From positions 323,614 to 387,613 of the forward strand of contig NZ_QFRK01000001.1 of assembly GCF_003143855.1 (NCBI RefSeq): a stretch of DNA of 64,000 bases. The letters are read 5' to 3'. This DNA is from Streptomyces sp. NWU339 (GTDB lineage: Bacteria > Actinomycetota > Actinomycetes > Streptomycetales > Streptomycetaceae). A program made the position numbers and the translations under genes. Positions 27,960 through 52,462 of this stretch are shown piece by piece. The notes beneath the pieces were generated by a model, which was not told the DNA's origin, ran no database searches, and saw nothing but the letters and a program-made list of their open reading frames with translations. Position 1 is the stretch's first letter. Every line of letters begins with the position of its first letter.

Positions 27960-29450
27960 CTAGGCCGCGTCGGAGACGGACCGTCGTGCGGGCGCGCGCC
28001 GGGTCGCCGAAGCGGAGCGGCGCCGACCGCGTGAGGTGGCGCCGCGCTTGGGGCGGTCGACCACCGGTGCGGTGATGACGACCGGGATGCCGGAGGGGGC
28101 CTGGGCACCGGTGATGCGGTGCAGGGCCTCCGCGCCCGCGCGGACCTGGGTGGTGTGCGGGACGATGCCGGCCATTGCCATGAGACGGGTCATGGCGCGG
28201 CGCTGGTTCGGGGTGACCAGGGTGACGACGCTGCCGGACTCGCCGGCGCGGGCCGTGCGGCCGCCGCGGTGGAGGTAGTCCTTGTGGTCGGTCGGAGGGT
28301 CGACGTTGACGACGAGGTCGAGGCTGTCGACGTGAATGCCGCGCGCAGCGACGTTGGTCGCCACCAGCACGCTGACGTGTCCGTTCTTGAACTGCGTCAG
28401 CGTACGGGTGCGCTGCGGCTGCGACTTGCCCCCGTGGAGGGAGGCGGCCCGCACCCCGCTGTTCAGGAGGTGCTCGGTGAGGCGGTCGACGGCGTGCTTG
28501 GTGTCCAGGAACATGATCACGCGGCCGTCGCGTGCGGCGATCTCGGTGATGGCCGCGTGTTTGTCGGCGCCGTGGACGTGGAGCACATGGTGCTCCATCG
28601 TCGTGACCGCGCCGGCCGACGGATCGACGGAGTGCACGACGGGGTCGTTCAGGTAGCGGCGCACGAGCAGATCGACGTTGCGGTCGAGAGTGGCGGAGAA
28701 CAGCATGCGCTGACCCCCGGGGCGAACCTGGTCGAGCAGGGCGGTGACCTGCGGCATGAAGCCCATGTCGGCCATCTGGTCCGCCTCGTCGAGGACGGTG
28801 ACCAGGACCTGGTCCAGCCGGCAGTCGCCGCGTTCGATGAGGTCCTTGAGCCGTCCGGGGGTGGCGACGACGATCTCGACGCCGCGGCGCAGCGCGCCGG
28901 CCTGCCTGCTGATCGGCATCCCCCCTACGACCGTCGCCAGGCGCAGCTTCACGGCGCGGGCGTACGGCGTGAGCGCGTCGGTGACCTGCTGCGCCAGCTC
29001 ACGCGTCGGTACGAGGATCAGCCCCAGCGGCTGCCGGGCCTCGGCGCGCTGCCCGGCCGTACGGGCCAGCAGGGCCAGCCCGAAGGCGAGGGTCTTGCCG
29101 GAACCGGTGCGCCCCCGGCCCAGGACGTCCCGGCCGGCGAGGGAGTTCGGCAGCGTCGCGGCTTGGATCGGGAACGGGGCGGTCACGCCCTGTGAGCCGA
29201 GCGCGGCCAGCAGCTCCATGGGCATGGCGAGATCGGCGAAGCTCGCCGCGGCGGGCAGCGCCGGGGTGATCGTCTTCGGGAGGGCGAACTCACCCTGCAA
29301 CGCGGCGGGGCGGCGGCTGTGACCATTGGAACGAACCGGTCCGCCGGAGCGGCTCGGGGACGATGAGCCGAACCGTTTGCCGTTCTTCCCGGGGGCGGTG
29401 CTGCCGTTCCGAGTGCGAGCGAAGCGGTCGTTCGTGCGTGTGCGGTTCAT
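27960..29450 (-). CDS. Cold-shock-type DEAD-box RNA helicase
   Basis: This 496-residue helicase would unwind structured RNA in the cytoplasm. It has a basic Ser/Arg-rich N-terminus, the Q motif (FPIQAATLPN), motif I GRTGSGKT, PTRELA, TPGRL, motif II LDEADQM, motif III FSATLD, RT in GGKSQPQRTRTL, NVAARGIHVD and motif VI HRGGRTARAG. A basic C-terminal tail ends RRAPARRSVSDAA. ATG 29450 follows AAGGAAGG. It heads the run with the CBS and SCO5918-family genes and lies 0.3 kb from a CspA gene, so cold-induced expression is likely. A second, longer DEAD-box helicase at 42-44.6 kb is a paralogue. Confidence 0.92.
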   Translation of the reverse strand: MNRTRTNDRFARTRNGSTAPGKNGKRFGSSSPSRSGGPVRSNGHSRRPAALQGEFALPKTITPALPAAASFADLAMPMELLAALGSQGVTAPFPIQAATLPNSLAGRDVLGRGRTGSGKTLAFGLALLARTAGQRAEARQPLGLILVPTRELAQQVTDALTPYARAVKLRLATVVGGMPISRQAGALRRGVEIVVATPGRLKDLIERGDCRLDQVLVTVLDEADQMADMGFMPQVTALLDQVRPGGQRMLFSATLDRNVDLLVRRYLNDPVVHSVDPSAGAVTTMEHHVLHVHGADKHAAITEIAARDGRVIMFLDTKHAVDRLTEHLLNSGVRAASLHGGKSQPQRTRTLTQFKNGHVSVLVATNVAARGIHVDSLDLVVNVDPPTDHKDYLHRGGRTARAGESGSVVTLVTPNQRRAMTRLMAMAGIVPHTTQVRAGAEALHRITGAQAPSGIPVVITAPVVDRPKRGATSRGRRRSASATRRAPARRSVSDAA

Positions 29451-29735
29451 GCGGGACCTTCCTTGATGCGGCACATATCAAGGAATTCCCGCAGCAGTGC
29501 GCAGCATGGAGAATTGCAAGAACGGGCCGGTGGAACGCGAAGCGAATCTGGCCGGCAGAAAATCCGTGCGGGCGCAGGCGCTGAAATGGGTGACGCGATG
29601 TGGATGCAATACTCAGGGCGTCGACTGCGATGCAGCTATGCAAGGATGCACTGCATCCCCGAAAGGGAACCCGTGTGCGTAAGTCCGCGGATTCCTCGCA
29701 GTCGTCCCGCAGGTGAAACCACTACGGGAAGTGCG
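29451..29735. other. Leader and promoter region of the helicase gene
   Basis: This 285-bp region is less GC-rich than the genes. It probably holds a long 5' leader as is usual for cold-induced helicases. No conserved RNA motif can be named, and no ORF is supported. Confidence 0.45.
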
Positions 29736-30302: not shown

Positions 30303-30668
30303 TTAGCCTCGATCTTTCGTGATCGGCCGTCAGCTCTTGCTGGCGGCCGATCTACGTTCGGCGGTGTTCTTCGGACGTGAGGGCAGCCCGACTGTCGCGT
30401 CGGGTGGGCGTCGGGTTCCACGGCTCCGGCGGCGTGGTGCTGTTCGCAGGAACGGGACTTGCTGGTCAGCCGGGGTTGGGAAGGGTTGCGAGTCGCTGGA
30501 TCGCACCGCTGATCACATCGGTCCAGGGCCAGTGGCGGGCGAACCTCAGGTGCCGGCGGCGCGCGGTGGTGACCAGCTGGACGGCGGCGGAGAGCAAGCG
30601 GAGTCGCAGGCGGCGGGGCTCCCAGAGCCGGGGTACCTGTCAGAGCGAGCATCGGCATCCAGCCTGGA
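30303..30668 (-). mobile_element. Truncated IS1380-family element (3' end only)
   Basis: The terminal repeat CCTCGATCTTTCGTGA at 30307-30322 matches both ends of the IS at 13233-14888. The minus strand carries the transposase C-terminus in broken frames: WMPMLALTG, then after a one-base deletion RLWEPRRLRLRLLSAAVQLV and RHWPWTDVISGAIQRLATL. The 5' three quarters of the element is missing. Its inner edge is fused to the relaxase gene. Confidence 0.8.
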
Positions 30669-31275
30669 GCCACTCACGGCTGGTGCGTTCCCATCCGAGG
30701 CGCTGGGCCTTGTGCATCTCCGCCTGGGTGGGGCGGCGGGTGGCGGTGCGGTCGCCCTTCTTCAACTGCCGCAGGCCATAGTCCTTCTCGATCTGCCGAC
30801 ATGCGTCGCCCACACGGAGACCGCTGTCGTGAAGCTTGGGACGGCGGCCGTCCTCACGAACCGTGGTGGCGAGGATGTGGATGTGGTCGTCGGCGTGGCG
30901 TACGGCGATCCAGCGGCAGCCGAGGTCGCCGCTCGCCGAGACGATGCCGGCGGCTTCCACGATGCGCTGGGCGATCTCCGCCCACTCGGAGTCGGAGAGG
31001 TGGCGGTCCTCGGGGGCAGCACGAACGGGGCAGTGCCAGACGTGGTCCGTGATCTTCTTGCCGAACTCGCTGTTGCGCAGCCGCACGGGCTCGTCGAGGT
31101 GGCGGGTGAGCTGAGTGAGGGTGGCGTCCTCGTTGCGTCCGGGATCGGGCATGTCGAGCATCGCGAAACCGGCGACGATGTGCGGATCGGTGTGCTCGTC
31201 GTGCCGACCCGGCCCATAGAGGTACGCGAGCAGGCCGCGTGTGTTGGCCCCGGCCGGTTTGATTGCGGCGATCAT
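30640..31275 (-). pseudogene. Relaxase/mobilization nuclease, 3'-truncated
   Basis: The surviving 200 or so residues are the N-terminal catalytic half of a MobA/MobL-like relaxase: MIAAIKPAGANTRGLLAYLY, a HIVAGF motif near residue 33, and the metal-binding histidine motif DDHIHILATT (about 128-137). Full-length relatives have about 500-600 residues. After REWLQ the frame enters the IS1380 remnant and stops (GCRCSL). The start ATG overlaps the mobC stop as ATGA, so the two were translationally coupled. Nicking activity might remain, but the C-terminal partner-binding part is lost. Confidence 0.8.
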
Positions 31276-31988
31276 GCGGACAGGTCCTTCGTCGGGTCGG
31301 TGGGCTCGCGCAGAGCCTCGGCGATCAGCTCCAGCAGGTGGTGGAGCTCAGCGAGGTTCCGGCGGATGTCGGGCGGAGTGAGGTCGCTGTTGAGCGCCCG
31401 GGCGATCTGGTTGACGTTGACGCCGATGCGGTTGAGGTGGCGCAGTACCCGCGTGCGGAACTCGTGCGTACGGCGGCGGTCCTCGGACAGAGGCAGATTC
31501 GCGGTGAACCGGCCGTCCATGAACGCGAGGACGACATCGGCGGCGAAGCCGGATTCGCCTTTGTAGCCGTGCTCTGCGGCGACCTCTTGGAGGCGCAGGC
31601 GTTCCTCGCCAAGGAAGCGCAGAGGGCCGACGCGTTCTACGCGCTTGTCGCCGGTGAAACGGCGGATCGTGGGCTGAGCACACTGGGCATGCGGATCGCT
31701 GGACGCGGGGCGGAGAACGGCTCTCTGCGCGGCGGGGAATTCGTCCGGCTCGGGGCCGCCCTCGGCCCCGACCCCCGGGTCCGGCGCCCCCTGGCGCCGG
31801 GCCGTCTCCGCCACCCCCGGGGCGGAGATCCCCGAAGGCCGGCCGTGAGTCGGACTCGGGGTACTACTGGCTCCGCCAGGGGCCGTCCGTCCGAACGCCT
31901 GCCGCAAACGCGCCAGCAGCGCAGGGGACTTCGCCGACGGCAGCGGCTCGTCGGGGGCGTTCTCGGGGTGGAGCGGGTCGCGCGTCAT
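31272..31988 (-). CDS. mobC: MobC-like relaxosome accessory protein
   Basis: This 238-residue protein has a Pro/Ala-rich N-terminal half and a C-terminal MobC module: GDKRVERVGPLRFLGEERLR, then RRTHEFRTRVLRHLNRIGVN and VNQIARALNSD (the ribbon-helix-helix and Asn-rich N-Q-I-A-R motif of MobC proteins). It would help the relaxase open DNA at oriT. ATG 31988 fits the coupled layout: its stop overlaps the relaxase start by ATGA. It is the upstream member of the mobilization pair in this integrative element. Confidence 0.8.
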   Translation of the reverse strand: MTRDPLHPENAPDEPLPSAKSPALLARLRQAFGRTAPGGASSTPSPTHGRPSGISAPGVAETARRQGAPDPGVGAEGGPEPDEFPAAQRAVLRPASSDPHAQCAQPTIRRFTGDKRVERVGPLRFLGEERLRLQEVAAEHGYKGESGFAADVVLAFMDGRFTANLPLSEDRRRTHEFRTRVLRHLNRIGVNVNQIARALNSDLTPPDIRRNLAELHHLLELIAEALREPTDPTKDLSA

Positions 31989-32117
31989 GGACGGTTCTCT
32001 CCAGAAAGGGACGGGGAGGGCATGCGGGGCGACGGGAAGGTCTGACGGAGCTCGAGCGCCCACCACCCCATCCACAGGTGTGGACGATCACGCGATGCGT
32101 GGGGCGGGGGCCGGCAG

Positions 32118-32162: not shown

Positions 32163-33026
32163 TCAGCTGCTGGCCGGATCGGACTCGGCGGAGGCTTCGC
32201 GCTCGGCCCGGAGGATGGCCATCACCTCGGTCAGCCGCTTGCTGCCGATCGTCAGCCCCTTGTCCTCAACTGCCATTCGGACGACGGCCCGGGTGAGCTT
32301 GCCCTGCTCAGCGGCAGCAGCCCGGCCGATCTCCACGAGTACCTCGAGTGGGGCGCCGGGCGGACGGCCACCACGCGGCTTGCCCTCAGCGGCGTCGAAA
32401 GACGATTCCGACGGCTGGACGGATAGGGCGGCCGGTGGCGCGGTGCCCTGGCCGGGCTCAACCAGTGGCTCGGCAGGCCGGACGCGCTCGACCGGAGCCT
32501 CGGCAGACTGGCCGGTTGCGGTGGCCGACGGCTCGGTGGGCCGGCCGGATGGGGTGACCGGTGGTTCCGGCACCTGCGCGGAACCAGGGCCCGAGGGGTC
32601 GACAGGCTGCTCGACGAGCTGGTGGATCTGCCGCATCAGCACGCCGAAGGCCACCATCGCGGCGGCCGGGGGAACCGCGGCGACCACGTAGTCGAGGAAC
32701 GGGACGGTGCCGGCGTCGCCCGTGCCGCTGACCCCGGCGACGTTCAGCGCGATGGAGCCGACCGATCCGATGGCGGTCACGGCGATGGCCCATCGGTCGG
32801 TGACGCGGCGCAGGGCCGCGCGGAGCATGAGCAGCTCCCCCGCGACGATGAACGCGTCCAGGGTCGCCGGCCACGCCCAACGGCGGATCGGCGACGTTCC
32901 CAACCCGTGCCGGCCGGCGACGTCGGCCAGGTGCGCGTAGGAGAGCCAGAACGCTCCGGCGGTCAGGGCCACGATGACGACGCCGGCCATGACGAGCGCG
33001 TATCGCTCGGCATCGTGCTTGGTCAT
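32163..33026 (-). CDS. DUF2637 (SpdB-like) membrane protein
   Basis: This 287-residue protein has four hydrophobic segments in its first 125 residues (starting ALVMAGVVIVALTAGAFWLS) with the conserved AWPATLDAFIVAGELLML. A Pro/Ser/Glu-rich linker and a C-terminal helix-rich domain (AVVRMAVEDKGLTIGSKRL) follow. DUF2637 proteins are the SpdB-type spread proteins of actinomycete conjugative plasmids and AICEs, acting in intramycelial spread. ATG 33026 (MTKHDAERYALV) is the conserved start. It lies between the mobilization genes and the DUF3631 gene. Confidence 0.88.
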   Translation of the reverse strand: MTKHDAERYALVMAGVVIVALTAGAFWLSYAHLADVAGRHGLGTSPIRRWAWPATLDAFIVAGELLMLRAALRRVTDRWAIAVTAIGSVGSIALNVAGVSGTGDAGTVPFLDYVVAAVPPAAAMVAFGVLMRQIHQLVEQPVDPSGPGSAQVPEPPVTPSGRPTEPSATATGQSAEAPVERVRPAEPLVEPGQGTAPPAALSVQPSESSFDAAEGKPRGGRPPGAPLEVLVEIGRAAAAEQGKLTRAVVRMAVEDKGLTIGSKRLTEVMAILRAEREASAESDPASS

Positions 33027-35018: not shown

Positions 35019-35249
35019 TCACGCCGCCAGTCCGAGCAGTTCCAGCAGGTCCGCGGTCACCACCCGGTAGGCGTTGCCGAGCCGCAGCACCTTGCACGGG
35101 TACTCGCCCCGCTTCGCCAGCTCGTACCCCTTGCTCCGCCCGAGACCCAGGGCTCGATTGCCTGTATCCAGGTCAACGGCCACGGGGAGGGCGAGCAGCT
35201 CCTCCCGGCTCATCCCCTTCACGCGTGCCGCGCGGCTTCCTTCAGGCAT
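35019..35249 (-). CDS. Excisionase-like helix-turn-helix protein
   Basis: This 76-residue protein matches the AlpA/Xis-type DNA-binding module: VAVDLDTGNRALGLGRSKGY is the helix-turn-helix and AKRGEYPCKVLRLGNAYRVV the wing. Such genes next to an integrase encode directionality factors that favour excision. ATG 35249 gives MPEGSRAARVKGMSREELLA; a start at the internal MSREEL is possible. It is divergent from the XRE regulator, sharing a region with nested palindromes. Confidence 0.75.
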   Translation of the reverse strand: MPEGSRAARVKGMSREELLALPVAVDLDTGNRALGLGRSKGYELAKRGEYPCKVLRLGNAYRVVTADLLELLGLAA

Positions 35250-35318
35250 GCAGCTTCCGTCCATTCCGTGCGCCGTCGGCGAACGAGCCCATCTCGTCCG
35301 GCTCCAGGCAGGCACTTA

Positions 35319-36029: not shown

Positions 36030-37576
36030 AGGGCTCCACTCACCGCCGCTGCTACTGCCGTGATCCCAAGACCAGCAAGCCGCTCGGCAAGAACTGTCCC
36101 AAGCTCTCCAGCCGCAAGCACGGCTCATACTCCATACGCCAGGAACTCCCGCCCCGCGAGGAAGGCACCCGCCGCTCCTTCAGCCGCGCCGGCTACGAGT
36201 CCCTGAAGGCCGCTCAGGCGGACCTCGACCACGTCCGCTCCCTGCTCGCCCTGGCGGACAAGGACGACCCGGACAGCCTCCAGCGCCTCGTGGCCATGCT
36301 GGAGGAGGTCGCGGTTGAGAAGGCTCCGTTGCCGGCCATCGAGGAGACCCGGCGCCGCCTGAGGGCCGGCCTGACCCTCAGGGGCAGCCTCACCGTGGGC
36401 GAGTGGCTCGACCAGTGGTTCGCCGCGAAGAAGCGCCGCAAGACCACTCTCAACGGTTATGCCTCCCACATCCGCGTCCACTTGAAGCCCCGCATCGGGC
36501 AAGTACGCCTCGACCGGCTCAACGTCGGCCACCTGGTGGAGATGTTCGATGCCATCGCCGACGAGAACGAGGTGATCGCGGCCGAGAACGATGCCCGCCG
36601 CGAGCAGATCGCCCGCTGCAAGCCGAGCAAGCCCGGTCGCCCCGTAGGAGCCGAGCGGAAGCTGCTGGCGGCCGAACGGGCCAAGCTGGCGGAGATGAAG
36701 CCGTTCCGGAAGGTCACCGGCCCGGCCACCCGTCAGGCGGTCCGCCGCACCCTCCGCGCTGCCCTGAACTCCGCGATCGCCCAGCAGCTCATCACCTTCA
36801 ATCCCGCATCCCACGTCGAGTTGGAGTCCGGCCGACGCCCCAAGCCGCTCCTATGGACCGAAGAGCGGGTCCGGCGGTGGTGCGAGACGGGCGAGACACC
36901 CGGCCCGGTAATGGTGTAGACCCCTCAGCAGTTCGGCGCCTTCCTCGACGCCGCCGAGGGCGACCGGCTGTACGCGATCTTCCACCTGATGGGCACCCGC
37001 GGCCTTCGTCGCGGCGAGGCGGTCGGCCAGGACTGGCACGAGATCGATCTCGACGCCGGCCTCATCACACCCGCCAAGGAGATCGTGGTGGACGGATGGG
37101 ATCCCTACGAGTCCGAGCCGAAGACGGACGGCAGCGCGAACACGATCGCGCTCGACAGCGTGAACATCGCCGTCCTGCGCGACCACAAGGCCCGCCAGGA
37201 AAAGGAACGCGCCGAGTGGGGCGACGCCTGGAAGGACACCGGCAAGGTGTTCACCAAGGAGGACGGTTCCTGGCTGCACCCGGAGACGGTCTCCGAGACC
37301 TTCCGCCGCGTCCTCGCCACGACCGATCTGCCGCCCATCACGCTGCGGGACCTGCGCCACGTCTCCGCGACCCTCACGCACGGAGGCGGCGGCGACATCC
37401 ATGCAGTGAAGGAGACGCTGCGGCACTCCACCATCACGCTGACATCGGACACGTACACGAGCCTGCTCCCTGAGCTGGACCGTGAGATCGCCGAGAAGGC
37501 GGCAAAACTGATCCCGCGGTCTCGTCCGGCAGTCGACGAATCGACGGCCTCACCGGCAGCCGATCCGCAGGCATGA
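36026..37576 (+). pseudogene. int: Tyrosine integrase interrupted by an in-frame amber codon
   Basis: A continuous frame of 516 codons encodes a streptomycete tyrosine recombinase broken only by TAG at 36917-36919 (codon 298). The N-terminus has a Cys-rich arm (HRRCYCRDP, GKNCPKL), then a SAM-like domain (TVGEWLDQWFAAKKRRKTTL). After the stop come the catalytic domain motifs: GTRGLRRGEAV (first Arg, about 326), TLRDLRHVSATL (about 441) and LRHSTITLTSDTYTSL with the nucleophile Tyr (about 476). The context PVMV-TAG-TPQQFGAFLDAAE suggests Trp (TGG) changed by one base. Without readthrough no active integrase is made. Confidence 0.85.
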
Positions 37577-37579
37577 ACG

Positions 37580-37597
37580 CATCCGCTCACGCATCGC
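37580..37597 (+). repeat. 18-bp direct repeat just after the integrase gene (copy 1)
   Basis: CATCCGCTCACGCATCGC lies 3 bp after the integrase stop and recurs exactly at 42020-42037 beside the tRNA-Lys gene. The bases on either side differ. It may mark an attachment or recombination site. Confidence 0.75.
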
Positions 37598-37752
37598 CCA
37601 GGGGTTGAACGTCTGCCTGCACTACTTGCCGTCGAAGCCGGCCGGGGTTCCACGGCGATCTCGGAGACACCGGTACCCGGCGGTCCCAGGAGTAGCGTGG
37701 TCAGCACGAGGCGAATCCGTGTTCGCACCGGATCCCGAACGGGTGGTCCCTC

Positions 37753-38229
37753 ATGACCGACTCCGACACATCCCCTGGTTTCCGGCATCTGCCGAGTGGC
37801 ATTCACCAGGCCGTGCGGCCGGGGTGTGCACTGCTCCGGCTGGAGACGACGGCATCGCGCGAAGGCGTTCTCGACGGGGCGTGGTGGCCGCGGTCGCGTG
37901 ATATCGGTGCGGAGTTGCCCGCGCTGCTGAGCGCCCTCACGGGGCACCTCGGGCCCCTGACCCGCGTCGGGCTGGACGCCGAAGCCTGGGAAGGGCTCCC
38001 GACTCGGATCGTCGTGGACGACCGGGTAGTGCACATCGACTCCTTCCCGGTGGGTGACGACACCGTCCTGATCACCCGGGGCGAGAAAGACCTCTTCTCT
38101 CTGCTGGTGGTTCCGCCGGACGCGGCTCCCGAGGCCGCCCACGCGGCGATGGCCCAGGCTGTCCGGGCCGACAATCTCAGCCCGGCGGAGCAGATCATCG
38201 TCGACACGGGAAGCGGGCAGAGGCCGTAG
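37753..38229 (+). CDS. DUF5994 family protein
   Basis: This 158-residue soluble protein contains CALLRLETTASREGVLDGAW followed by WPRSRDIGAELPALLSAL and a C-terminal LLVVPPDAAPEAAHAAMAQA. The DGAWWPR(S/C) core and P-P-D ending are the DUF5994 hallmark. The family is abundant in Streptomyces beside anti-sigma/anti-anti-sigma genes, but its function is unknown. A paralogue lies 1.3 kb away at 39546-40046 on the other strand, flanking a broken phosphatase gene. The start ATG 37753 fits family length. Confidence 0.8.
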   Translation: MTDSDTSPGFRHLPSGIHQAVRPGCALLRLETTASREGVLDGAWWPRSRDIGAELPALLSALTGHLGPLTRVGLDAEAWEGLPTRIVVDDRVVHIDSFPVGDDTVLITRGEKDLFSLLVVPPDAAPEAAHAAMAQAVRADNLSPAEQIIVDTGSGQRP

Positions 38230-38273
38230 CGCTGACGGGCCGGGCCGCCCCGCGGCCGGCGCCGACGGCGCGC

Positions 38274-39483
38274 TCAGCCGCGCCACTCCATCAGGAGGAG
38301 CGTGGCGTCGTCCGTGGTGTGTCCGCCCCGCGCCCGCTTGAGTGTGTGCGACAGGGAGCGTGTCACCGCCCGGACACCGCGACCGGTTCTCTCCAGCTGG
38401 TTCACCCAGTCGATCAGCTGGTCCTCCCCCGAACTGCTCTTCGCCCCTCGCGTGTTCCTCGATCAGTCCGTCGGTGAAGCAGAGGACGCGGTCTCCGCGT
38501 TCCAGACCCACCTCGCTGACCTCTGGCTCCGGTCCGCCCAGGCCGACCGGGAGTGTCGTGGGGGCGGCCAGCCGACGCGTGAGGCGGTGGTCGCGAACGA
38601 GCATCGGCAGCGGGTGTCCCGCATTGACCCACTGCATGCTTCCCGTGGTCGTGTTCAGCCGCATCATCTGCGCGGTGACGAAGTGGTCAGGACCGAACTG
38701 CTGTGCCACAGCGGCGTCCATGAAGGCATAGATCTCCGACAGCCCGGTTCCGAGGCGGCGGGCGTGGCGGTAGGCGCCGATGGCCACGGTGGCCATGGTG
38801 GCCGCGTCCAAACCGTGCCCCATCGCGTCGATCATGGCCACGTGGAGGACGTCGTCGTTGAGCGCGTAGTCGAAGCTGTCGCCCGCCACGTCGTAGGCGG
38901 GTTCCAGGATTCCGGCCACGGCGACGCGCGGCATGATCATGGCCAGCGGCGGCAGCAGAGACCACTGGATCTCGGCGGCGACGCTCATCGCTTCACCGCG
39001 CCGGGTATGGAAGAACAGGTCGGAGTAGCCGTGTTTGGTCACCAGCAGGTCGGCCACCAGGCCGGCGAGCCTGCGCAGCATGCGGCGGTCGTCGTCATCG
39101 ACGCGGTCCAACGTCACGGCCATGACGCCCACCTGGTCGCCGCCGTCCAGCAGCGGCAGGTGGACCCGTACGCCGTCGTCCTCGGGCAGTTCGACCGTCA
39201 GCGCGTCGAGGAAGCAGCGCCCGGCGGCAGAGTCGTCGATCACCTGCGGGTCCCCGCCCGTGAGGCCCTCGCCGGGCAGGGGTACGAGCAGCAGCTGGCC
39301 ATAGTCCTGCGGCAGCACCTACGGACGGCGGCCCCCCAACCGCTCCACGACGCCGGCGACCAGCGACCCGATGAGATGGGGCGGAAGCGCGTGCGCGCGA
39401 TCGAGAACCATACCCAGCAGCGCTTCCCCGAAGCTCTCGGAGCGGTCCGCACGACGCCCGGCTGTCATTCGCTCACCCGCCAT
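38274..39483 (-). pseudogene. SpoIIE-type PP2C phosphatase, broken by a stop and a frameshift
   Basis: The gene from ATG 39483 encodes an N-terminal sensor-like segment, then an SpoIIE/RsbU phosphatase domain: SVAAEIQWSLLPPLA, VAGDSFDYALNDDVLHVAMI, DAMGHGLDAATMA (metal-binding Asp-Gly region), WVNAGHPLPMLV and RVLCFTDGLIEE. Two lesions break it: TAG at 39319-39321 after VVERLGGRRP, and one extra G in a run of five near 38437-38441, after which the correct frame reads DQLIDWVNQLERTGRGVRAV to the end at 38274. Intact homologues dephosphorylate STAS proteins. The G-run lesion could be a sequencing error; the stop is harder to dismiss. Confidence 0.8.
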
Positions 39484-39545
39484 GATCCGTGCGTGTACGG
39501 ACGGCGGGGTCGGAGGACGAAGGGACTGCCCGTCTCATCGCTCCA

Positions 39546-40046
39546 TCATGGCCCGTTCCGCTCCCCGGCGCTCCCCTGGCCGAAGCCGTCCTCGACGCGC
39601 GCCAGGATGCGCTGAGCCGACAGCGGGTTCCAGGGATCGGCGGCGGCGGTCAGCAGCCGGGCGGCCGTTCCGACCGGCTCGTCGGGCGGGATGACCAGCA
39701 GCTCCCAGCGCCCCACGGTGCCGCAGTCCACGGCGATGGCATGGGCCTCGTCGGCGACATCGGTCAGGATCACCTCGATCACGTGATCGGGCGCCGGCAC
39801 TGTCTGTGGGGCATCGGGCCAAGCCTCTGCGCCCACGGTCACACGGGTGACGGTGCCATGACCCGGGTCCAATGAGCCCACGAGCGCGGGCAACTCCAGT
39901 TCCAGGGCGCCGCACCGCGGCCACCACGCCCCGTCCAGCGGGCCGTGGCTGGCGTCCGGCGTGAGGCTCAGCCGGGGCAGGGGCATCCGGTAGGTGTGTT
40001 CGTCAGCTGAGGACGTGCCGCCGGCGGGCGGAGTGATGGCGTCCAT
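39546..40046 (-). CDS. DUF5994 family protein, second copy
   Basis: This 166-residue protein has RLSLTPDASHGPLDGAWWPR, a middle strand region and WELLVIPPDEPVGTAARLLT near the C-terminus, as in the paralogue at 37753-38229. The two share the DGAWWPR and IPPDE/VPPDA blocks but differ widely elsewhere, so they are old paralogues. ATG 40046 is the first in-frame start; an internal ATG at 39986 is possible. It lies upstream of the phosphatase remnant on the same strand and downstream of the STAS-GNAT gene. Confidence 0.75.
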   Translation of the reverse strand: MDAITPPAGGTSSADEHTYRMPLPRLSLTPDASHGPLDGAWWPRCGALELELPALVGSLDPGHGTVTRVTVGAEAWPDAPQTVPAPDHVIEVILTDVADEAHAIAVDCGTVGRWELLVIPPDEPVGTAARLLTAAADPWNPLSAQRILARVEDGFGQGSAGERNGP

Positions 40047-40145
40047 CGTGCGGTCCCGTCCCGGGTGGCCTTCGGCTGCCCGCGTTCGTCACTTGCCGGG
40101 AACGGCGCCGCCGTGGTCGTGCGCGCGACATGCTCTCGGTACCTC

Positions 40146-41159
40146 TCAGGCTACTCCCGGCCTGGGCCGACGGCGCGAGGCGCAGGCGCCGTGCGAAAGC
40201 GCGGTTTCCCGGGACAGGCCCAGCACGCAGGGGGCGACCGGACCGGGCAGCCCGATCACCTCTCCGTGGTTCCGCCAGCCCCAGGACTCGAAAGCGGCCT
40301 GCCCGGCCTGGTCGGCCGGATGAAGCAGGGCGACTGCGAGGGCATTGTGCCGGTCGGCCAGCAGGCGCTGTTGCAGACGGCGGGCGATGTCGAGGTGTTG
40401 GGCGTGCGGATGCGCCACAACCTGGGTGAGGAGCAGGAACCGGGTGCAGCCGGTAAGCCGTTGGATGCTCTCCTGCAGTCCTCGGTCGGACCGGACGCCG
40501 GGGCATATCGGAAAGCCGAAGGCGCATCCGACCAGCCTCGTCGTCTCGGCGACCAGCAGCGCGAAGCCGGGCCGTCGGGCGCTGGCGGCCAACCGCCGCA
40601 GGAAGTCGCCCCGATCCTGGTACGCCTCCCCGGATGTGCCCACGACGGACGCCATGGCCAGGTCGGCGATGTCCTCACTCATCCCCTCCGCCTGCCAACG
40701 ACTCAGCCGGCGAAGGCGGATCCCGTCCTTGACGACCGGCGCACTGGCGCGGTCGCCCACCGTCGGCATCCCGTCGGTGGGCGAACCCGACGGGGCCGTC
40801 TCCAGTAGATCGCGGAGCAGGGCGGGTGGCGCCGGAAACGCCGGGGCCGCAAGGAGCAGGGGTGTAGAGCCGGTGGCGGCGAGCAGCCGGGTGATCTGCG
40901 CGCACGGATGGTGCAGCCGCAGGGAGGCGTGCACCCGGCCGGCGCGCTGTGACGCCGTCAGGAAGACGTTGAGGCCCTTGGCATCGCAGGAGCCGACCGT
41001 CGTCAGATCGACGTCGATGGCGGTCACGCCGTCGCGCAGACACTGGTCCAGCGCGGCCCGCAGCAGGGGCGCTGTGGCCGACCCGATCTCACCGGCGAGC
41101 GTGACGAGAGCCCGCTCCCCTCGGTCACGTCGGTGGATGTCCAGCCGCCGCAGGGCCAT
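40146..41159 (-). CDS. STAS domain fused to a GNAT-like acetyltransferase domain
   Basis: This 337-residue protein has an N-terminal STAS (anti-anti-sigma) domain, residues about 1-110: RALVTLAGEIGSATAPLLRA, AIDVDLTTVGSCDAKGLNVF. A C-terminal GNAT-like half follows (about 165-320), with RLVGCAFGFPICP and HPHAQHLDIARRLQQRLLAD in the acetyl-CoA-loop position. In phosphorylatable STAS proteins the loop reads D-S-S-G; here it is D-A-K-G, so the phospho-acceptor Ser is absent. The fusion would couple partner binding to acetylation or simply sense acyl-CoA, which is inferred. ATG 41159 follows GGAGG. Confidence 0.8.
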   Translation of the reverse strand: MALRRLDIHRRDRGERALVTLAGEIGSATAPLLRAALDQCLRDGVTAIDVDLTTVGSCDAKGLNVFLTASQRAGRVHASLRLHHPCAQITRLLAATGSTPLLLAAPAFPAPPALLRDLLETAPSGSPTDGMPTVGDRASAPVVKDGIRLRRLSRWQAEGMSEDIADLAMASVVGTSGEAYQDRGDFLRRLAASARRPGFALLVAETTRLVGCAFGFPICPGVRSDRGLQESIQRLTGCTRFLLLTQVVAHPHAQHLDIARRLQQRLLADRHNALAVALLHPADQAGQAAFESWGWRNHGEVIGLPGPVAPCVLGLSRETALSHGACASRRRPRPGVA

Positions 41160-41512
41160 CACGCCTCCGCCCGGCAGGCGCACAGAACGGCACAGACACT
41201 GAACTTGCGCGAAGTTGCTTCGATGGCGGCGGACACGATGCCGACCCGTCTCCGCGCCGACCGCTCGGGCAGGTACGGGGTTCGTCTCTCGCCGAGGACG
41301 ACCCGGCGTGGCGGCCTGAGTACGCGATGCCCTCGGTATCTCCACGGTACGCCGCCGACAACTGGAACGGTTGCGGCGCGGGGCAGGAGTGGCGTGGGAA
41401 GGATCGAGGGTACGTCGTACGCCGCTGACAGGACTGGTCTTGTCCTCGGCGCGCGGCGCGGGCCGTGCGACACGATACGAGCCGTTCCTCGGCCCAGGTC
41501 GGGTTCCGCCTC
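41160..41512. other. Intergenic region with two similar 20-bp patches
   Basis: TACGCCGCCGACAACTGG at about 41348 and TACGCCGCTGACAGGACTGG at about 41413 are near-duplicates 65 bp apart, as seen for duplicated promoters or operator sites. No ORF is supported. Confidence 0.4.
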
Positions 41513-41821
41513 ATGACCACCGAACCCGTGCGCCTTCCGTACCCGCTTCCGTCCGCGGACCCGCCGGACGACGTTCCCAGTGAGAGCAGGGTCGAGGCCC
41601 GCATCATCTCCATGGACCCCGAAGCGGCCCGGCACGTCGCCGATGCCCTCCGGCTGCTGTTCGCCGGGGGCGAGCAGCGCAGTTATCCGGCGTGCCCGTC
41701 GGAAGAGGGACACGTCTGCACCTCACGCTCGATCCCGCGCGGGGCGTCGGCCCGCGGCTGCTCCTGGCTGGAGGCCAGCAGGCCGCCCGTGGACCGAACG
41801 CATCCGGGCGAGACCGCCTGA
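41513..41821 (+). CDS. Hypothetical protein with a scrambled middle
   Basis: The 102-codon frame from ATG 41513 begins MTTEPVRLPYPLPSADPPDD, passes a helical part (MDPEAARHVADALRLLFAGG) and ends SWLEASRPPVDRTHPGETA. Between them the reading is Cys/Ser-rich and improbable, while the neighbouring frame reads GTRLHLTLDPARG over the same bases. This suggests two compensating indels of a real protein of similar length. No function is known. The ribosome binding site is weak. Confidence 0.4.
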   Translation: MTTEPVRLPYPLPSADPPDDVPSESRVEARIISMDPEAARHVADALRLLFAGGEQRSYPACPSEEGHVCTSRSIPRGASARGCSWLEASRPPVDRTHPGETA

Positions 41822-41908
41822 CGCGTGTCCCCGCCGGCGCCGGACCAACGGCACCCACCAAGCCACCGCCACCGGCGGATCTCCACCACTCCAGCCCCAG
41901 GAGACCTC

Positions 41909-42010
41909 ATGACAACCGCCTCAGTGCTCCACTCGTCCACAGAGGCGGAAGCCGAGCGGTTCATGGAGACGGCCACAGCAGACAGCCGGCTCGTGGGGCA
42001 CGCTGCCTGA
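41909..42010 (+). CDS. Small ORF ending at the repeat boundary, probably truncated
   Basis: A 33-residue frame from ATG 41909, with AGGAG 6 nt upstream, starts MTTASVLHSSTEAEAERFME and ends RLVGHAA at TGA (42010), 9 bp before the 18-bp repeat at 42020. The good ribosome binding site and acidic helical start look genuine, but the abrupt end at a recombination boundary suggests loss of the 3' part. Confidence 0.4.
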   Translation: MTTASVLHSSTEAEAERFMETATADSRLVGHAA

Positions 42011-42019
42011 CCGCGGGCA

Positions 42020-42037
42020 CATCCGCTCACGCATCGC
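42020..42037 (+). repeat. 18-bp direct repeat near tRNA-Lys (copy 2)
   Basis: Exact second copy of CATCCGCTCACGCATCGC found at 37580-37597, here followed by TCACGCAAGG, 99 bp from the tRNA-Lys 3' end. The two copies bound the DUF5994/SpoIIE/STAS-GNAT segment. Confidence 0.75.
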
Positions 42038-42136
42038 TCACGCAAGGGCCCGAAAACGAAGCAGCGCCCGAGCCGACCGAAGCCGACCCGGACGCTGAAG
42101 ACCAGGTCAGAGGGGGTAACCCCTTCCCCACATCCG

Positions 42137-42209
42137 TAGGCCCTGTGGGACTCGAACCCACAACCAATGGATTAAAAGTCCACTGCTCTGCCAATTGAGC
42201 TAAGGGCCC
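42137..42209 (-). tRNA. tRNA-Lys (UUU anticodon)
   Basis: The 73-nt cloverleaf has acceptor arms GGGCCCT and AGGGCCT (one G-U), anticodon loop CTTTTAA and T-arm GTGGGTTCGAGTCCCAC. The 3' CCA is not encoded. It marks the border between accessory DNA (left) and conserved chromosome (right), a common integration target. Confidence 0.95.
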
Positions 42210-42363: not shown

Positions 42364-44568
42364 TCAGCCGTTGCGCTTCCAGCGCGGCTTGTCCTCGCGG
42401 CGGCCGAAGGAGCCGCCACCGCGGTGGTCGTCACGGCGGCCGTACGGGCGGTCGTGGGAGGCACCGGAACGGAAGCCGGGGCGGTCGCCCTGACGGTCAC
42501 GGTTGAACGGACGGTCGCTGCCGCGGTGGCCGCCACGCTCGTCGCGACGGAAGCCGCCACGGTCACGGTCGCCGTCACGGCTGAACCCACTGCGGTCGTC
42601 ACGGCGTTCGAAGGAACGGCCACCGCGGTCACGGTCACGGTCGAAGGAACGGCCGCCACGGTCACCCCGGTCGTCACGGCGGAAGCCGCCACGGTCGCCG
42701 TCACGGCGGTCGTCGCGACGGAAACCGCCGCGGTCACCGCGGTCGTCACGGCGTTCGAAGGAACGGCCGCCCCGGTCGCCGTCACGGCGGTCGAAGGAAC
42801 GGCCGCCACGGTCACCCCGGTCGCCACGGTCACCCCGGTCGTCACGGCGGAAGCCGCCACGGTCGCGGTCCCTGTCGCGGTTGAACCCACCGCGGTCGTC
42901 ACGGCGTTCGAAGGAACGGCCGCCACGGTCACCGCGGTCGCCCCGGTCGTCACGGCGGAAGCCGTCCCGGCGCTCGGGGCGCTCGAAGCGCTCCGTGTCG
43001 CGCGCGGTCGGCTGCTCCGGCAGCGAGACCACGGTCTGGGCCTGGGCCGCCGCCACCTCAGTGGCCGCCTCGGCCACCGCCGTCTCCGGGTCCTCGCCCC
43101 GCTCCCGGGCGGCCCTGGCGACCAGCCGGTCCGCCTCGTCACGCAGTTCGGACGCGCGGCGCTGCGCCCGCTCCAGCTCCTTGGTGAGCTGGGCGACCTC
43201 ACGCTCCGCGTGCTGCGCCGCGTTGCCCGCCGACTCCGCCTGGACCTCGGTCATCGACCGGGCCCCGGTGATCTCGGCGAGCTCCGGGTCGAAGGCCGCG
43301 CCGCCCTGGATGATGTGGCGCGTGGCGTCCACGCCCGCGTCCTCCATCAGCCGGAAGATCTGGCGCCGCTGGTGCGGCAGCGAGAGGGAGACCACGGTGC
43401 CGGTACGGCCCGCGCGCGCCGTGCGGCCGGCCCGGTGCAGGTAGTCCTTGTGGTCGCCGGCCGGGTCGACGTTCAGCACCAGGTCGATGCCGTCGACGTG
43501 AATACCGCGCGCGGCGACGTCCGTGGCGACCAGGACGTTGACGTAGCCGTCCTTGAAGTCGGCCAGCGTCCGCGTCCGCGCGCCCTGCGTCATGCCGCCG
43601 TGCAGCGCGTCGGCCTTCGCACCCGCCTCGCGCAGCTGGTCGGCGACACGGTCCGCGCCCAGCTGGGTGCGGACGAAGATGATGGTGCGGCCCTTGCGGG
43701 AGGCGATGGCCGCGGTGACCGGCGCCTTGTCCTTCGGCTTCACGACCAGGATGTGGTGCGACATGGTCGTGACGGCACCCTGGGCGGCGTCGACCTCGTG
43801 GCTGACCGGGTCCTTCAGGTACCGGTCGACGAGGGTCTTGATCTCGTTCTCCATCGTCGCGGAGAACAGCATCCGCTGACCGCCCGCCGGAACCTGGTCC
43901 AGCAGCTCCGTCACCTCGGGCAGGAAGCCCAGGTCGGACATCTGGTCGGCCTCGTCGAGGACGGCGATCTGCACGTTCTCCAGGGAGCACGCGCCACGGT
44001 TGATGATGTCGCGCAGCCGGCCGGGCGTGGCGACGAGGATGTCGACACCGCGCTCGAGGGCGTAGATCTGGTTGCCCATGGAGGTGCCGCCGCAGACGAC
44101 CTTCATGCGCAGGCCGACGACGTCGCCGTAGGGCTGGAGGGCGTCGGCCACCTGCATGGCCAGCTCACGGGTGGGCGTCAGGATGACGGCCCGCGGCTTG
44201 TGCTTCTCGGTCCGGCCACCGGCCAGCGTGGCCAGCGTCGGCAGACCGAAGGAGAGGGTCTTGCCGGAGCCGGTACGGCCCCGGCCGAGGATGTCCTTGC
44301 CGGCCAGGGCGTCCGGGATGGTCGCCGCCTGGATCGGGAAGGGGCTGGTCACGCCGTTCTGCGCGAGCTTGCGCACGACGCCCTCGGGAAGACCGAGGTC
44401 GGCGAAGGTGAGCTCGGGGGTGTCGTCGGTGACGCCGTCGTCGGCGACATCGATGACGGTGTCGTCGGCGACGTCGGTGATGACGGCGGTGATGTCGGTG
44501 TCCACCGAGCTCCCTGCGTTCTCAGGGGTCTCGGGCACGACGACGTGATCAGTACTGGCGATGGGCAT
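42364..44568 (-). CDS. DEAD-box RNA helicase with long RG/RD-rich tail
   Basis: This 734-residue cytoplasmic RNA helicase is probably the SCO4096-type core enzyme. After an acidic N-terminus (about 60 residues) come the Q motif FPIQAATIPD, GRTGSGKT, PTRELA, TPGRLRD, LDEADQM, FSATMEN, DVAARGIHVDG and HRAGRTARAG. A coiled coil of about 80 residues (LTKELERAQRRASELRDEAD) follows, then roughly 200 residues made of RRDDRGDRGG and RSFERRDDR repeats that should bind RNA nonspecifically and favour condensates. ATG 44568 starts MPIASTDHVVV. It is monocistronic with a strong terminator. Confidence 0.93.
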   Translation of the reverse strand: MPIASTDHVVVPETPENAGSSVDTDITAVITDVADDTVIDVADDGVTDDTPELTFADLGLPEGVVRKLAQNGVTSPFPIQAATIPDALAGKDILGRGRTGSGKTLSFGLPTLATLAGGRTEKHKPRAVILTPTRELAMQVADALQPYGDVVGLRMKVVCGGTSMGNQIYALERGVDILVATPGRLRDIINRGACSLENVQIAVLDEADQMSDLGFLPEVTELLDQVPAGGQRMLFSATMENEIKTLVDRYLKDPVSHEVDAAQGAVTTMSHHILVVKPKDKAPVTAAIASRKGRTIIFVRTQLGADRVADQLREAGAKADALHGGMTQGARTRTLADFKDGYVNVLVATDVAARGIHVDGIDLVLNVDPAGDHKDYLHRAGRTARAGRTGTVVSLSLPHQRRQIFRLMEDAGVDATRHIIQGGAAFDPELAEITGARSMTEVQAESAGNAAQHAEREVAQLTKELERAQRRASELRDEADRLVARAARERGEDPETAVAEAATEVAAAQAQTVVSLPEQPTARDTERFERPERRDGFRRDDRGDRGDRGGRSFERRDDRGGFNRDRDRDRGGFRRDDRGDRGDRGDRGGRSFDRRDGDRGGRSFERRDDRGDRGGFRRDDRRDGDRGGFRRDDRGDRGGRSFDRDRDRGGRSFERRDDRSGFSRDGDRDRGGFRRDERGGHRGSDRPFNRDRQGDRPGFRSGASHDRPYGRRDDHRGGGSFGRREDKPRWKRNG

Positions 44569-44882
44569 ACGAATGCGAAACCTTCCGGAGTCTCTTCGGC
44601 ACGCGCCCGTCAACTCCGTGATTCGCGATTCGCAATATGACCGCCTCGATGCGGTCCACCACGGTAAGGGGAGAGTACGCGCCACACGGCGCGCTCTGCA
44701 GTGGCGCCGGGCAAATAGGATCAAACGATCTGCCACCATACGCACCCTCCCCCACCGAAAGCAAACCGATCTCCCCTCACTCCACAGACCCGCAGGTCAG
44801 CAGAGTGAAGGCCAATCGGCCCACGCATCGACAGGACGGCAGGACAAGTGCGCATACCGGCGAGGAAACGCTGGAGAAGCCG
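44569..44882. other. Promoter and leader of the helicase gene
   Basis: This 314-bp region contains a moderately AT-rich segment at 44620-44760 and no supported ORF. A leader of this length is usual for regulated DEAD-box genes. Confidence 0.45.
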
Positions 44883-47747: not shown

Positions 47748-47782
47748 CGCACCACCCTGTGCGACACTGTCGTACGAAGCTT

Positions 47783-47857
47783 GGTCCTGTGGAGCAGTTA
47801 GGAGTGCTCGCCACCCTGTCAAGGTGGAGGCCGCGGGTTCAAATCCCGTCAGGACCG
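47783..47857 (+). tRNA. tRNA-Asp (GUC anticodon), copy 1
   Basis: 75 nt; acceptor GGTCCTG/CAGGACC, anticodon loop CTGTCAA, T-arm GCGGGTTCAAATCCCGT. Identical in sequence to the copy at 52177-52251. Confidence 0.96.
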
Positions 47858-47881
47858 CTGAGGTTTCACGTGAAACCTCGT

Positions 47882-52082: not shown

Positions 52083-52176
52083 CGGAAGCGGCACGCAGGG
52101 TGAATTCGACCAGCGGGCCACGACTCCTGTACAGTCTCTTCTCGCAGCGCAAGACGGTAATCGCGCCGCGAAACCT

Positions 52177-52251
52177 GGTCCTGTGGAGCAGTTAGGAGTG
52201 CTCGCCACCCTGTCAAGGTGGAGGCCGCGGGTTCAAATCCCGTCAGGACCG
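52177..52251 (+). tRNA. tRNA-Asp (GUC anticodon), copy 2
   Basis: Sequence-identical to 47783-47857. A perfect palindromic terminator begins 6 bp downstream, and a degenerate copy of its 3' end plus that terminator follows about 123 bp on. Confidence 0.96.
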
Positions 52252-52462
52252 CTTTCACGAAGGGGCCCGCACCGTACGGTGCGGGCCCCTTCGCCGTACT
52301 TGAGACCGGGCCGGGGCAGAGGCCGCGCCCGCGGCGGCAGCCGCCGTCGAACACAGCGAACCCCGTCAGGACCGCATCCACCAAGGCGCCCGCACCATGT
52401 GGCGCGGACCCTTTCGCCGTATCCGCGACCAGGCCGCGCCCGTGGCGGTCGCCGTAACGGTG
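52234..52462 (+). repeat. Degenerate tandem duplication of the tRNA-Asp 3' end and terminator
   Basis: Unit 1 (about 52234-52357) contains CCCGTCAGGACCGC, the terminator and AGGCCGCGCCCGCGGCGG. Unit 2 (about 52358-52462) repeats CCCCGTCAGGACCGC, a decayed hairpin with GCGCCCGCACCATGTGGCGC, TTTCGCCGTA and AGGCCGCGCCCGTGGCGG. Order and spacing are kept, so it is a true duplication of 100-120 bp, perhaps an old integration scar. Confidence 0.6.
52258..52293. terminator. Terminator of tRNA-Asp copy 2
   Basis: Perfect 18-bp inverted arms, CGAAGGGGCCCGCACCGT and complement, meet at position 52275/52276. Confidence 0.85.

What the first reader, a model, noticed from the sequence alone, without database searches (positions are those of the whole stretch)
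37580..42037. 4.4-kb segment bounded by an exact 18-bp direct repeat beside tRNA-Lys
CATCCGCTCACGCATCGC lies directly after the integrase and again 99 bp from the tRNA-Lys gene. An integrase normally sits next to its attachment site, so the segment between looks inserted or captured between the integrase and the tRNA. It has no recombinase of its own.
Basis: partly seen in the sequence, partly recalled or inferred. Interest (0 to 1): 0.6.

Follow-up and report, generated by a model that had tools for sequence, protein, structure and literature searches.

The report
Hitchhiking gene cassette at tRNA-Lys
A 4.4-kb block of signalling genes sits between a mobile element's integrase and the tRNA gene where the element is inserted; the 18-letter repeat around it is the integrase's presumed docking site, and relatives show that such blocks ride along as interchangeable cargo between Streptomyces species.

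Summary
The repeat is real: exact copies at 37580-37597 and 42020-42037, no other copy in the genome at up to 2 mismatches. It is not the junction of a captured segment. It is most of a 24-bp tandem pair of 11-bp units found at fixed spacing on both sides of tRNA attachment cores in Streptomycetaceae, which is how paired arm-type integrase sites look. The left copy is where the integrase's own arm site belongs; the right copy is the normal 113 bp (start to start) from tRNA-Lys. In 9 of 32 examined integrase loci, integrase, arm and tRNA are joined directly; in 21 of 32, window included, 1.4-5.9 kb of cargo lies between. The window's cargo (two DUF5994 genes plus a remnant, SpoIIE phosphatase, STAS) also fills that slot in G274, G413 and G265, where integrase, cassette and arm are 95-98% identical but the flanking chromosomes 81-83%. 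In 11 of 21 further loci the cassette lies beside a tRNA-Arg(CCT) or tRNA-Lys core, in three between two tRNA-Arg cores with no related integrase inside. Best reading: a decayed integrative element fused by accretion and junction deletion to an integrase-less (CIME-like) cassette. The kind is known; the recurrent cargo slot and this cassette were not found in the literature searched.

The parts
30643..31275 (-). relaxase (MobA/VirD2-like), truncated at about 30640-30663
   Evidence: Pfam PF03432 E=6e-11; in most relatives compared, homology of the element begins at 30663-30668
31275..32075 (-). MobC-like mobilisation protein
   Evidence: PF05713 E=1.7e-7
32166..33026 (-). DUF2637 protein
   Evidence: PF10935
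33529..35097 (-). DUF3631 protein (replication/primase-like by recall)
   Evidence: PF12307 E=4.5e-76
35022..35315 (-). 98-aa ORF, probable excisionase by position only
   Evidence: no Pfam hit; a gene annotated 'excise' holds the corresponding place upstream of HTH and int in phage TurkishDelight
35346..36029 (+). HTH regulator
   Evidence: PF13560/PF01381
36026..37576 (+). tyrosine integrase of the element, interrupted by TAG at 36917-36919
   Evidence: PF14659 and PF00589; homologues 90-94% identical over the C-terminal half, most without internal stops
37580..37597 (+). integrase-proximal arm-type site: first 11-bp unit intact, second decayed
   Evidence: at +57 from integrase residue 202, against +58 in 6 of 9 directly joined relatives
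37598..42019 (.). 4422-bp cargo cassette between the two arm sites
   Evidence: same cassette, 83-85% identical over the main block 37690-41360, between integrase and tRNA-Lys in G274, G413, G265; also beside tRNA-Arg(CCT)
37753..38229 (+). DUF5994 gene 1
   Evidence: PF19457 E=5.6e-37
38274..39483 (-). GAF-SpoIIE (PP2C-type) phosphatase, broken by a stop near 39319 and a frameshift near 38440
   Evidence: PF07228 E=4.6e-32 on the unbroken middle stretch; full-length orthologues in G413, G265, G175; ends read
39546..40046 (-). DUF5994 gene 2
   Evidence: PF19457 E=1.2e-30
40146..41345 (-). STAS-domain protein with a long C-terminal extension
   Evidence: PF13466 E=3e-11
41465..41821 (+). small conserved ORF without Pfam hit, frameshifted relative to G175 (by eye)
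41909..42010 (+). internally deleted remnant of a third DUF5994 gene
   Evidence: both ends align by eye with the full gene in G175 (L275:4247-4660:-; Pfam of the G175 gene)
42020..42043 (+). tRNA-proximal arm-type site, complete tandem pair of 11-bp units
   Evidence: motif start 113 bp from tRNA 3' end; 111-114 in 21 of 21 cargo loci
42136..42209 (-). tRNA-Lys(TTT); the attachment core is its 3' 46 bp (42136-42181)
   Evidence: ARAGORN; 37 bp of the core exact at the attL of 9 of 9 relatives and on own contig C48

Best explanation
This is the right end of a decayed tRNA-Lys integrative mobilisable-type element (relaxase, MobC, DUF2637, DUF3631, regulator, tyrosine integrase), fused to a second, integrase-less cassette that had inserted at the same tRNA. 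Shown: the 18-mer belongs to a tandem 11-bp-unit motif at fixed spacing on both sides of tRNA cores; the int-side copy is where the element's own arm site belongs, and the tRNA-side copy is the arm of the occupied tRNA; the same integrase, cassette and arm are shared as one near-identical block by three relatives whose chromosomes are divergent; the cassette also sits beside tRNA-Arg(CCT), in G175 between two cores with no related integrase inside. Inferred: that the motif is bound by Int (or Xis); that the cassette first arrived as a cis-mobilizable element by accretion; and that a deletion at the tandem junction (removing the inner core and left arm) welded it to the integrase element, so that Int acting on the outer sites would mobilise both together. 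In this strain the integrase, the phosphatase and the relaxase are broken and the left end lies on another contig, so the copy here is probably immobile.
For: Motif class: of 131 occurrences, 44 lie before an intact tRNA (42 of them at 104-127 bp, all tRNA-Lys or tRNA-Thr), 8 more on the same side of a partial tRNA, 67 on the other side of a partial tRNA (65 of 67 with the T-arm 145-155 bp upstream), 12 neither; at 2184 random positions of the same loci the same T-arm test hits 10 times on the right and 16 on the left. Direct join in 9 of 32 integrase loci, cargo in 21, no intact tRNA found in 2. Graded junctions: inner core plus decayed left arm (G329), inner core (G327), about 20 bp of core (G240), arm without core (G279), motif only (window), decayed motif (G274, G413, G265) (partly by eye). 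Joint transfer: int plus cassette side 94.9-97.7% against 81.2-82.7% for the chromosomal flank in the three pairs of G274/G413/G265, with the drop just beyond the tRNA. Cassette beside a tRNA-Arg(CCT) or tRNA-Lys core in 11 of 21 further cassette loci.
Against: The window keeps no inner core or left arm between int and cassette, so the accretion step is inferred from relatives. Ten of 21 cassette loci have no Arg or Lys core nearby, so the cassette is also an ordinary chromosomal gene set. I saw no integrase remnant of the cassette's own former helper before the right arm of the window (by eye only). Window versus G413 identity of the cassette (83%) is close to chromosome-level divergence, so recent transfer into this strain is not shown. 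Cassette positions beside tRNA-Arg may partly be vertical inheritance; this was not removed. The 21 cassette loci were picked by score, not at random.
Confidence: 0.75

Rival explanations
1. One reading: the segment was inserted or captured by recombination at the 18-bp repeat itself (homologous or Int-mediated exchange between arm sites, for example collapse of two arm motifs), the repeat being the crossover point.
For: Exact repeats flank the segment. Motif pairs on either side of an inner core lie only 261-272 bp apart in tandem arrays (909/1181 in L046, 3625/3886 in L275) and could recombine. G279, G240 and G329 also have an int-side and a tRNA-side motif around cargo.
Against: In 17 of 21 cargo loci no int-side motif is found at up to 4 mismatches, including the three with the same cassette. 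What follows the left copy here (CCAGGG) is not the TCACGC that follows 6 of the 8 left arms read; this is weak, because other left arms have changed there too (two, G175, own C48, G329). By recall, tyrosine integrases exchange strands in the core, not in arm sites. On checking I found the TCACGC argument weaker than first written and moved 0.03 of the odds here.
Confidence: 0.15
2. The cassette is native chromosomal DNA downstream of tRNA-Lys, and the integrase element merely lies next to it.
For: The genes are common in Streptomyces: 133 of 392 genomes match the cassette DNA at E<=1e-100, many of the listed matches over the SpoIIE gene alone. G081 has the cassette beside tRNA-Lys without a related integrase in the 12 kb fetched.
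Against: The native left flank with its own core copy is on contig C48 and is syntenic with 9 of 9 relatives; directly joined relatives have no room for the cassette here; near-identical int plus cassette in three species with divergent chromosomes.
Confidence: 0.06
3. The 18-bp repeat is a chance or low-complexity match.
For: Six exact direct repeats of 18 bp or more in the masked window.
Against: At least 119 stretches in genome contigs and 8 in viral contigs carry the 22-bp core of the motif, and 119 of 131 occurrences lie beside a tRNA 3' end.
Confidence: 0.02

Closest known systems
XSAM1, a 42-kb cis-mobilizable element immediately adjacent to the AICE pSAM2 in Streptomyces ambofaciens (PMC4891641, passages seen)
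   Same: an element named as cis-mobilizable next to an integrative element in Streptomyces
   Different: XSAM1 is much larger; here the inner core is lost and cassette and element form one composite
TR1 (CIME) and TR2 (ICE) toxicogenic region of scab-causing Streptomyces (PMC8369830, passages seen; Zhang and Loria 2017 known only from its citation there)
   Same: composite of an ICE and a cis-mobilizable neighbour with an internal att site
   Different: inserted at aviX1, not a tRNA, and carries thaxtomin genes
AICE/DAICE accretion at a tRNA-Arg hot spot in a Streptomyces population (PMC9513070, section 13 and passages read)
   Same: several elements with the same target stacked at one tRNA, with decayed remnants and pseudogenised cargo
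   Different: no integrase-arm cargo slot or arm motif in the parts read; the element here carries relaxase/MobC genes and no TraB was seen
attP of Cluster J mycobacteriophages (PMC3706429, passages seen)
   Different: 10-bp units of another consensus, a tRNA-Leu target, no cargo between int and arm in the passages seen

Membership tests
Cis-mobilizable element (CIME) | flanked by attachment sites on both sides | tested here: not met
   window: right arm and core only, no other tRNA-Lys core match of 11 bp or more in the window. Met in relatives: G175, G411, G275 have the cassette between two tRNA-Arg cores; G329 has other cargo between two tRNA-Lys cores
Cis-mobilizable element (CIME) | no recombination or transfer genes of its own | tested here: met
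   five segment ORFs scanned: DUF5994 twice, GAF-SpoIIE, STAS, one without hit; G175 orthologues agree
Cis-mobilizable element (CIME) | mobilised in cis by a neighbouring element | tested here: inconclusive
   int plus cassette shared as one block by three relatives; no excision assay possible, and the window's integrase is broken
Integrative mobilisable element at tRNA-Lys | tyrosine integrase with tRNA 3' end as core, duplicated at both ends | tested here: met
   core at 42136-42181 and on own contig C48, though the link between the two contigs is not shown; attL in 9 of 9 relatives
Integrative mobilisable element at tRNA-Lys | relaxase gene | tested here: met
   PF03432 and PF05713 hits, relaxase truncated
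Actinomycete ICE (AICE) | FtsK-like TraB transfer protein | tested here: inconclusive
   not among the 15 window proteins left of the cassette that were scanned; the left part of the element is missing
Paired arm-type integrase sites | direct repeats about one helical turn apart on both sides of the core at fixed distance | tested here: met
   period-11 self-match 10 of 10; fixed spacing on both sides, with control
Paired arm-type integrase sites | bound by the integrase N-terminal domain | not testable with these tools
   needs a binding assay; an excisionase site is not excluded (direct repeats one turn apart are also typical of RDFs, abstract of PMC7498355 in the listing)

The most novel reading that the evidence does not exclude
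The gap between integrase and its right arm site is a general, evolvable cargo slot of Streptomyces tRNA-Lys elements. It is filled again and again by accretion of integrase-less cassettes (a SpoIIE/STAS/DUF5994 regulatory module, restriction endonuclease, phosphorylase-type effector, pPIWI-associated nuclease, STAND-WD40) and welded in by deletion at the tandem junction. The conserved arm motif, shared by elements aimed at tRNA-Lys, tRNA-Thr and tRNA-Arg, would let one cassette pass between attachment sites.
Probability: 0.45. Interest if true: 0.6.

Novelty: new variant of a known kind. Interest (0 to 1): 0.45.

Why it matters
It gives a graded series, readable in genomes, of how a separate integrase-less island could become permanent cargo of an integrative element: complete inner attachment core, remnant core, arm only, bare motif, nothing. 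It also marks a place to look for mobile regulatory and defence-like genes in Streptomyces, and a 22-24-bp motif that can locate attachment sites of several tRNA targets without knowing the element.

Tried and rejected
Chance repeat: rejected through the fixed motif spacing and its control, although repeat length alone would not have excluded it.

tRNA core copy inside the window: none of 11 bp or more. A left attachment copy was then found on contig C48.

Collinear left flank on C1: in the listed (capped) matches, window 1-10000 hits scattered places in 9 of 9 relatives and not the tRNA-Lys neighbourhood, so I read the left side as rearranged and did not pursue it.

Close matches among plasmids and phages: no record has one place covering 80% of the query. 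Phage TurkishDelight has a related integrase and a tRNA-Lys core in the opposite orientation, but no match to the 22-bp motif at up to 6 mismatches on either strand of the 7.1-kb stretch held.

Collapse of two arm motifs by direct recombination as the exact joint: kept as part of a rival. The DNA right of the left copy lacks the TCACGC that follows most left arms, but some left arms have changed there too, so this does not decide it.

Defence reading of the window's own cassette: no PADLOC hit for the G175 phosphatase orthologue; the other cassette proteins were not scanned against PADLOC.

Papers: DUF5994 is in 0 papers of the library and the motif string in 0; 'cis-mobilizable' with Streptomyces in 5.

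Full report
Observation. Both 18-bp copies are exact and are the only ones in the genome at up to 2 mismatches. The left copy starts 3 bp after the integrase stop. The right copy ends 98 bp before the 3' end of tRNA-Lys(TTT), which lies on the minus strand at 42136-42209. The integrase is interrupted by an in-frame TAG at 36917-36919. Simple length is a poor argument: the masked window holds 6 exact direct repeats of at least 18 bp, against a mean of 0.5 in 40 order-3 Markov windows. Besides this one they are a tRNA-Asp pair, a stretch shared by two helicase paralogues, and three that I did not follow up.

What the repeat is. At the tRNA end the 18-mer is part of CATCCGCTCACGCATCGCTCACGC, whose core reads as two 11-bp units, CGCTCACGCAT and CGCTCACGCA (period-11 self-match 10 of 10). 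I classed 131 occurrences. Forty-four lie before an intact tRNA (27 tRNA-Thr, 17 tRNA-Lys), 42 of these at 104-127 bp, one at 81, one at 310. Eight more are on that side of a partial tRNA. Sixty-seven lie on the other side, downstream of a partial tRNA 3' end, and in 65 of the 67 the T-arm is 145-155 bp upstream. Twelve show neither. As a control the same T-arm test at 2184 random positions of the same loci hit 10 times on the right and 16 times on the left. [quoted passage not shown] I infer that the motif is an arm-type integrase site. An excisionase site is not excluded.

Where the two copies sit. In relatives whose integrase is directly joined to the tRNA, the motif starts 58 bp after integrase residue 202 (numbering of the C-terminal part used as query) in 6 of 9, and the tRNA 3' end lies 112-114 bp further in the 8 of 9 with a detectable motif. 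In the window the first copy is at +57, and the second is 113 bp from the tRNA. So the first copy is the integrase's own arm site, and the second is the arm of the occupied tRNA. In the first copy the second 11-bp unit has decayed.

Empty and filled sites. I tabulated 32 integrase loci: the 30 best-ranked, window included, plus G254 and G095, whose integrase matches are partial. G106 and G250, ranked between, and the remaining matches (132 of 392 genomes at E<=1e-40) were not examined this way. Nine are directly joined (133-171 bp from residue 202 to tRNA): G136, G183, G333, G200, G112, G285, G189, G013, G018. Twenty-one including the window have 1571-5986 bp there, ending at an arm site 111-114 bp from tRNA-Lys. 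Two (G327, G358) have no intact tRNA in the stretch held. In 4 of the 21 (window, G279, G240, G329) an int-side motif survives as well at up to 4 mismatches; in 17 of 21 it was not found.

Graded junctions. G329 keeps, after integrase and arm, an inner core, then a decayed left arm motif, then cargo. G327 keeps the inner core. G240 keeps the arm and about 20 bp of core. G279 keeps the arm without core, the window only the motif, and G274, G413 and G265 a decayed motif (the finer readings are by eye). In G023 the DNA just before the tRNA-side arm reads as an integrase C-terminal remnant (by eye), and in G329 and G348 partial integrase hits lie upstream of it. The series is what accretion at one tRNA followed by deletion at the tandem junction would leave. 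The order of events is inferred.

The cassette is mobile with the integrase. G274, G413 and G265 carry the window's cassette at 83-85% identity, in the same orientation and slot; G274 lacks about 640 bp of it. G286 also holds it at 83%, with only an integrase remnant beside it. Among the first three, the int-plus-cassette side is 96.3, 97.7 and 94.9% identical in the three pairs, while the chromosomal right flank is 81.2, 82.7 and 82.0%. In 25-bp bins identity is 22-25 of 25 up to and through the tRNA gene, still 21-24 in the next 50 bp, and 15-19 of 25 at 125-150 bp from the tRNA 3' end. The first 50 bp beyond the tRNA are fairly well conserved between window and G413 too, so the boundary is at the tRNA to within that distance. 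Upstream, G274 and G265 share 6.3 kb at 93% up to int, but most of their left halves show no DNA match. So int, cassette and arm moved between species together. For the window itself this is not shown: its cassette is about as divergent from G413 as the chromosomes are.

The cassette elsewhere. I fetched 20 high-scoring loci, most with several cassette genes, and already held G020. In 11 of these 21 a tRNA-Arg(CCT) core (G020, G247, G175, G411, G275, G109, G224, G093) or tRNA-Lys core (G286, G081, G182, the last with 3 mismatches) lies within about 3 kb; in 10 none was found. In G175, G411 and G275 the cassette lies between two tRNA-Arg cores with no related integrase inside. In G175 the neighbouring unit ends in an integrase tail, arm motif and core, then a left arm motif, cassette and intact tRNA-Arg. 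These loci were chosen by score, and shared ancestry among them was not removed.

Cassette content and decay. The intact version in G175 has a small gene with a weak winged-helix hit (PF13601, below its cut-off), DUF5994, GAF-SpoIIE phosphatase, DUF5994, STAS protein, a small ORF and a third DUF5994. This looks like a partner-switching signalling module, by recall of SpoIIE and STAS proteins. In the window the phosphatase has a stop and a frameshift, the small ORF is frameshifted, the third DUF5994 is internally deleted, and there is no room for the winged-helix gene.

Other cargo in the same slot. Pfam and PADLOC name a STAND-NTPase/WD40 protein (G279), a NaeI-type restriction endonuclease (G372), a pPIWI-associated nuclease (G394), phosphorylase-superfamily proteins (G259, G095, G329), an S1-domain protein (G029), DUF4231 (G023) and an XRE-DUF5753 regulator (G012). 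The proteins scanned from G123, G348 and G220 had no hit. Cargo of G105, G240, G254, G321 and G344 was not scanned. Similar cargo occurs with different integrases: G220 and G344 share two cargo blocks (77 and 81% DNA) with integrases 79% identical. Conversely G220 and G394, with integrases 96% identical, show no DNA match in their cargo.

Left end. The native left flank of tRNA-Lys, with the core and a partial left arm, is on contig C48 of this genome and is syntenic with 9 of 9 relatives. On C1 the relaxase is cut at about 30640-30663 beside a transposase remnant, and window 1-10000 matches scattered places in relatives. The element here is therefore broken and rearranged, or misassembled.

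Comparison with what is known. Accretion, defective elements and decayed cargo are described for Streptomyces (PMC9513070, section 13 and passages). CIMEs adjacent to AICE or ICE are described too (XSAM1 beside pSAM2, PMC4891641, passages; TR1/TR2, PMC8369830, passages). The window's cassette fails one CIME criterion because its left attachment site is gone, so I call it CIME-derived by inference, not a CIME. The arm motif string and DUF5994 were not found in the paper library.

Noticed in passing
window 13304-14878, 14562-14733 and 30461-30632: A DDE transposase gene (PF13701) and an inverted 72%-similar remnant of it 16 kb away; the remnant abuts the truncated relaxase at about 30.64 kb. Probable IS-linked rearrangement breakpoint.
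   Followed up: partly
G000 contig C48 (L199 about 8012-8141, minus strand): The attL of tRNA-Lys with the native left flank lies on a different contig from the tRNA, implying rearrangement or assembly error.
   Followed up: partly
window 27963-29474 and 42364-44745: Two DEAD-box helicase genes, one left of the element's relaxase and one next to tRNA-Lys, 73% identical over a 300-bp stretch; the second has a long arginine/glycine-rich repeat tail (the second named by its similarity and sequence, not scanned).
   Followed up: no
L064-L190: The same 22-bp motif marks elements at tRNA-Thr (often after an ORF ending in a lysine-rich tail) and tRNA-Lys, and with 1-2 mismatches tRNA-Arg(CCT), so the presumed arm specificity looks shared across different core specificities.
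   Followed up: partly
L251 (phage TurkishDelight): A Streptomyces phage carries a related integrase and a tRNA-Lys core downstream of it in the opposite orientation, without this motif in the stretch held.
   Followed up: partly
L110: One motif occurrence has a third tandem 11-bp unit.
   Followed up: no
window 47782-47859 and 52176-52253: Two tRNA-Asp(GTC) genes share a 78-bp identical stretch 4.4 kb apart.
   Followed up: no
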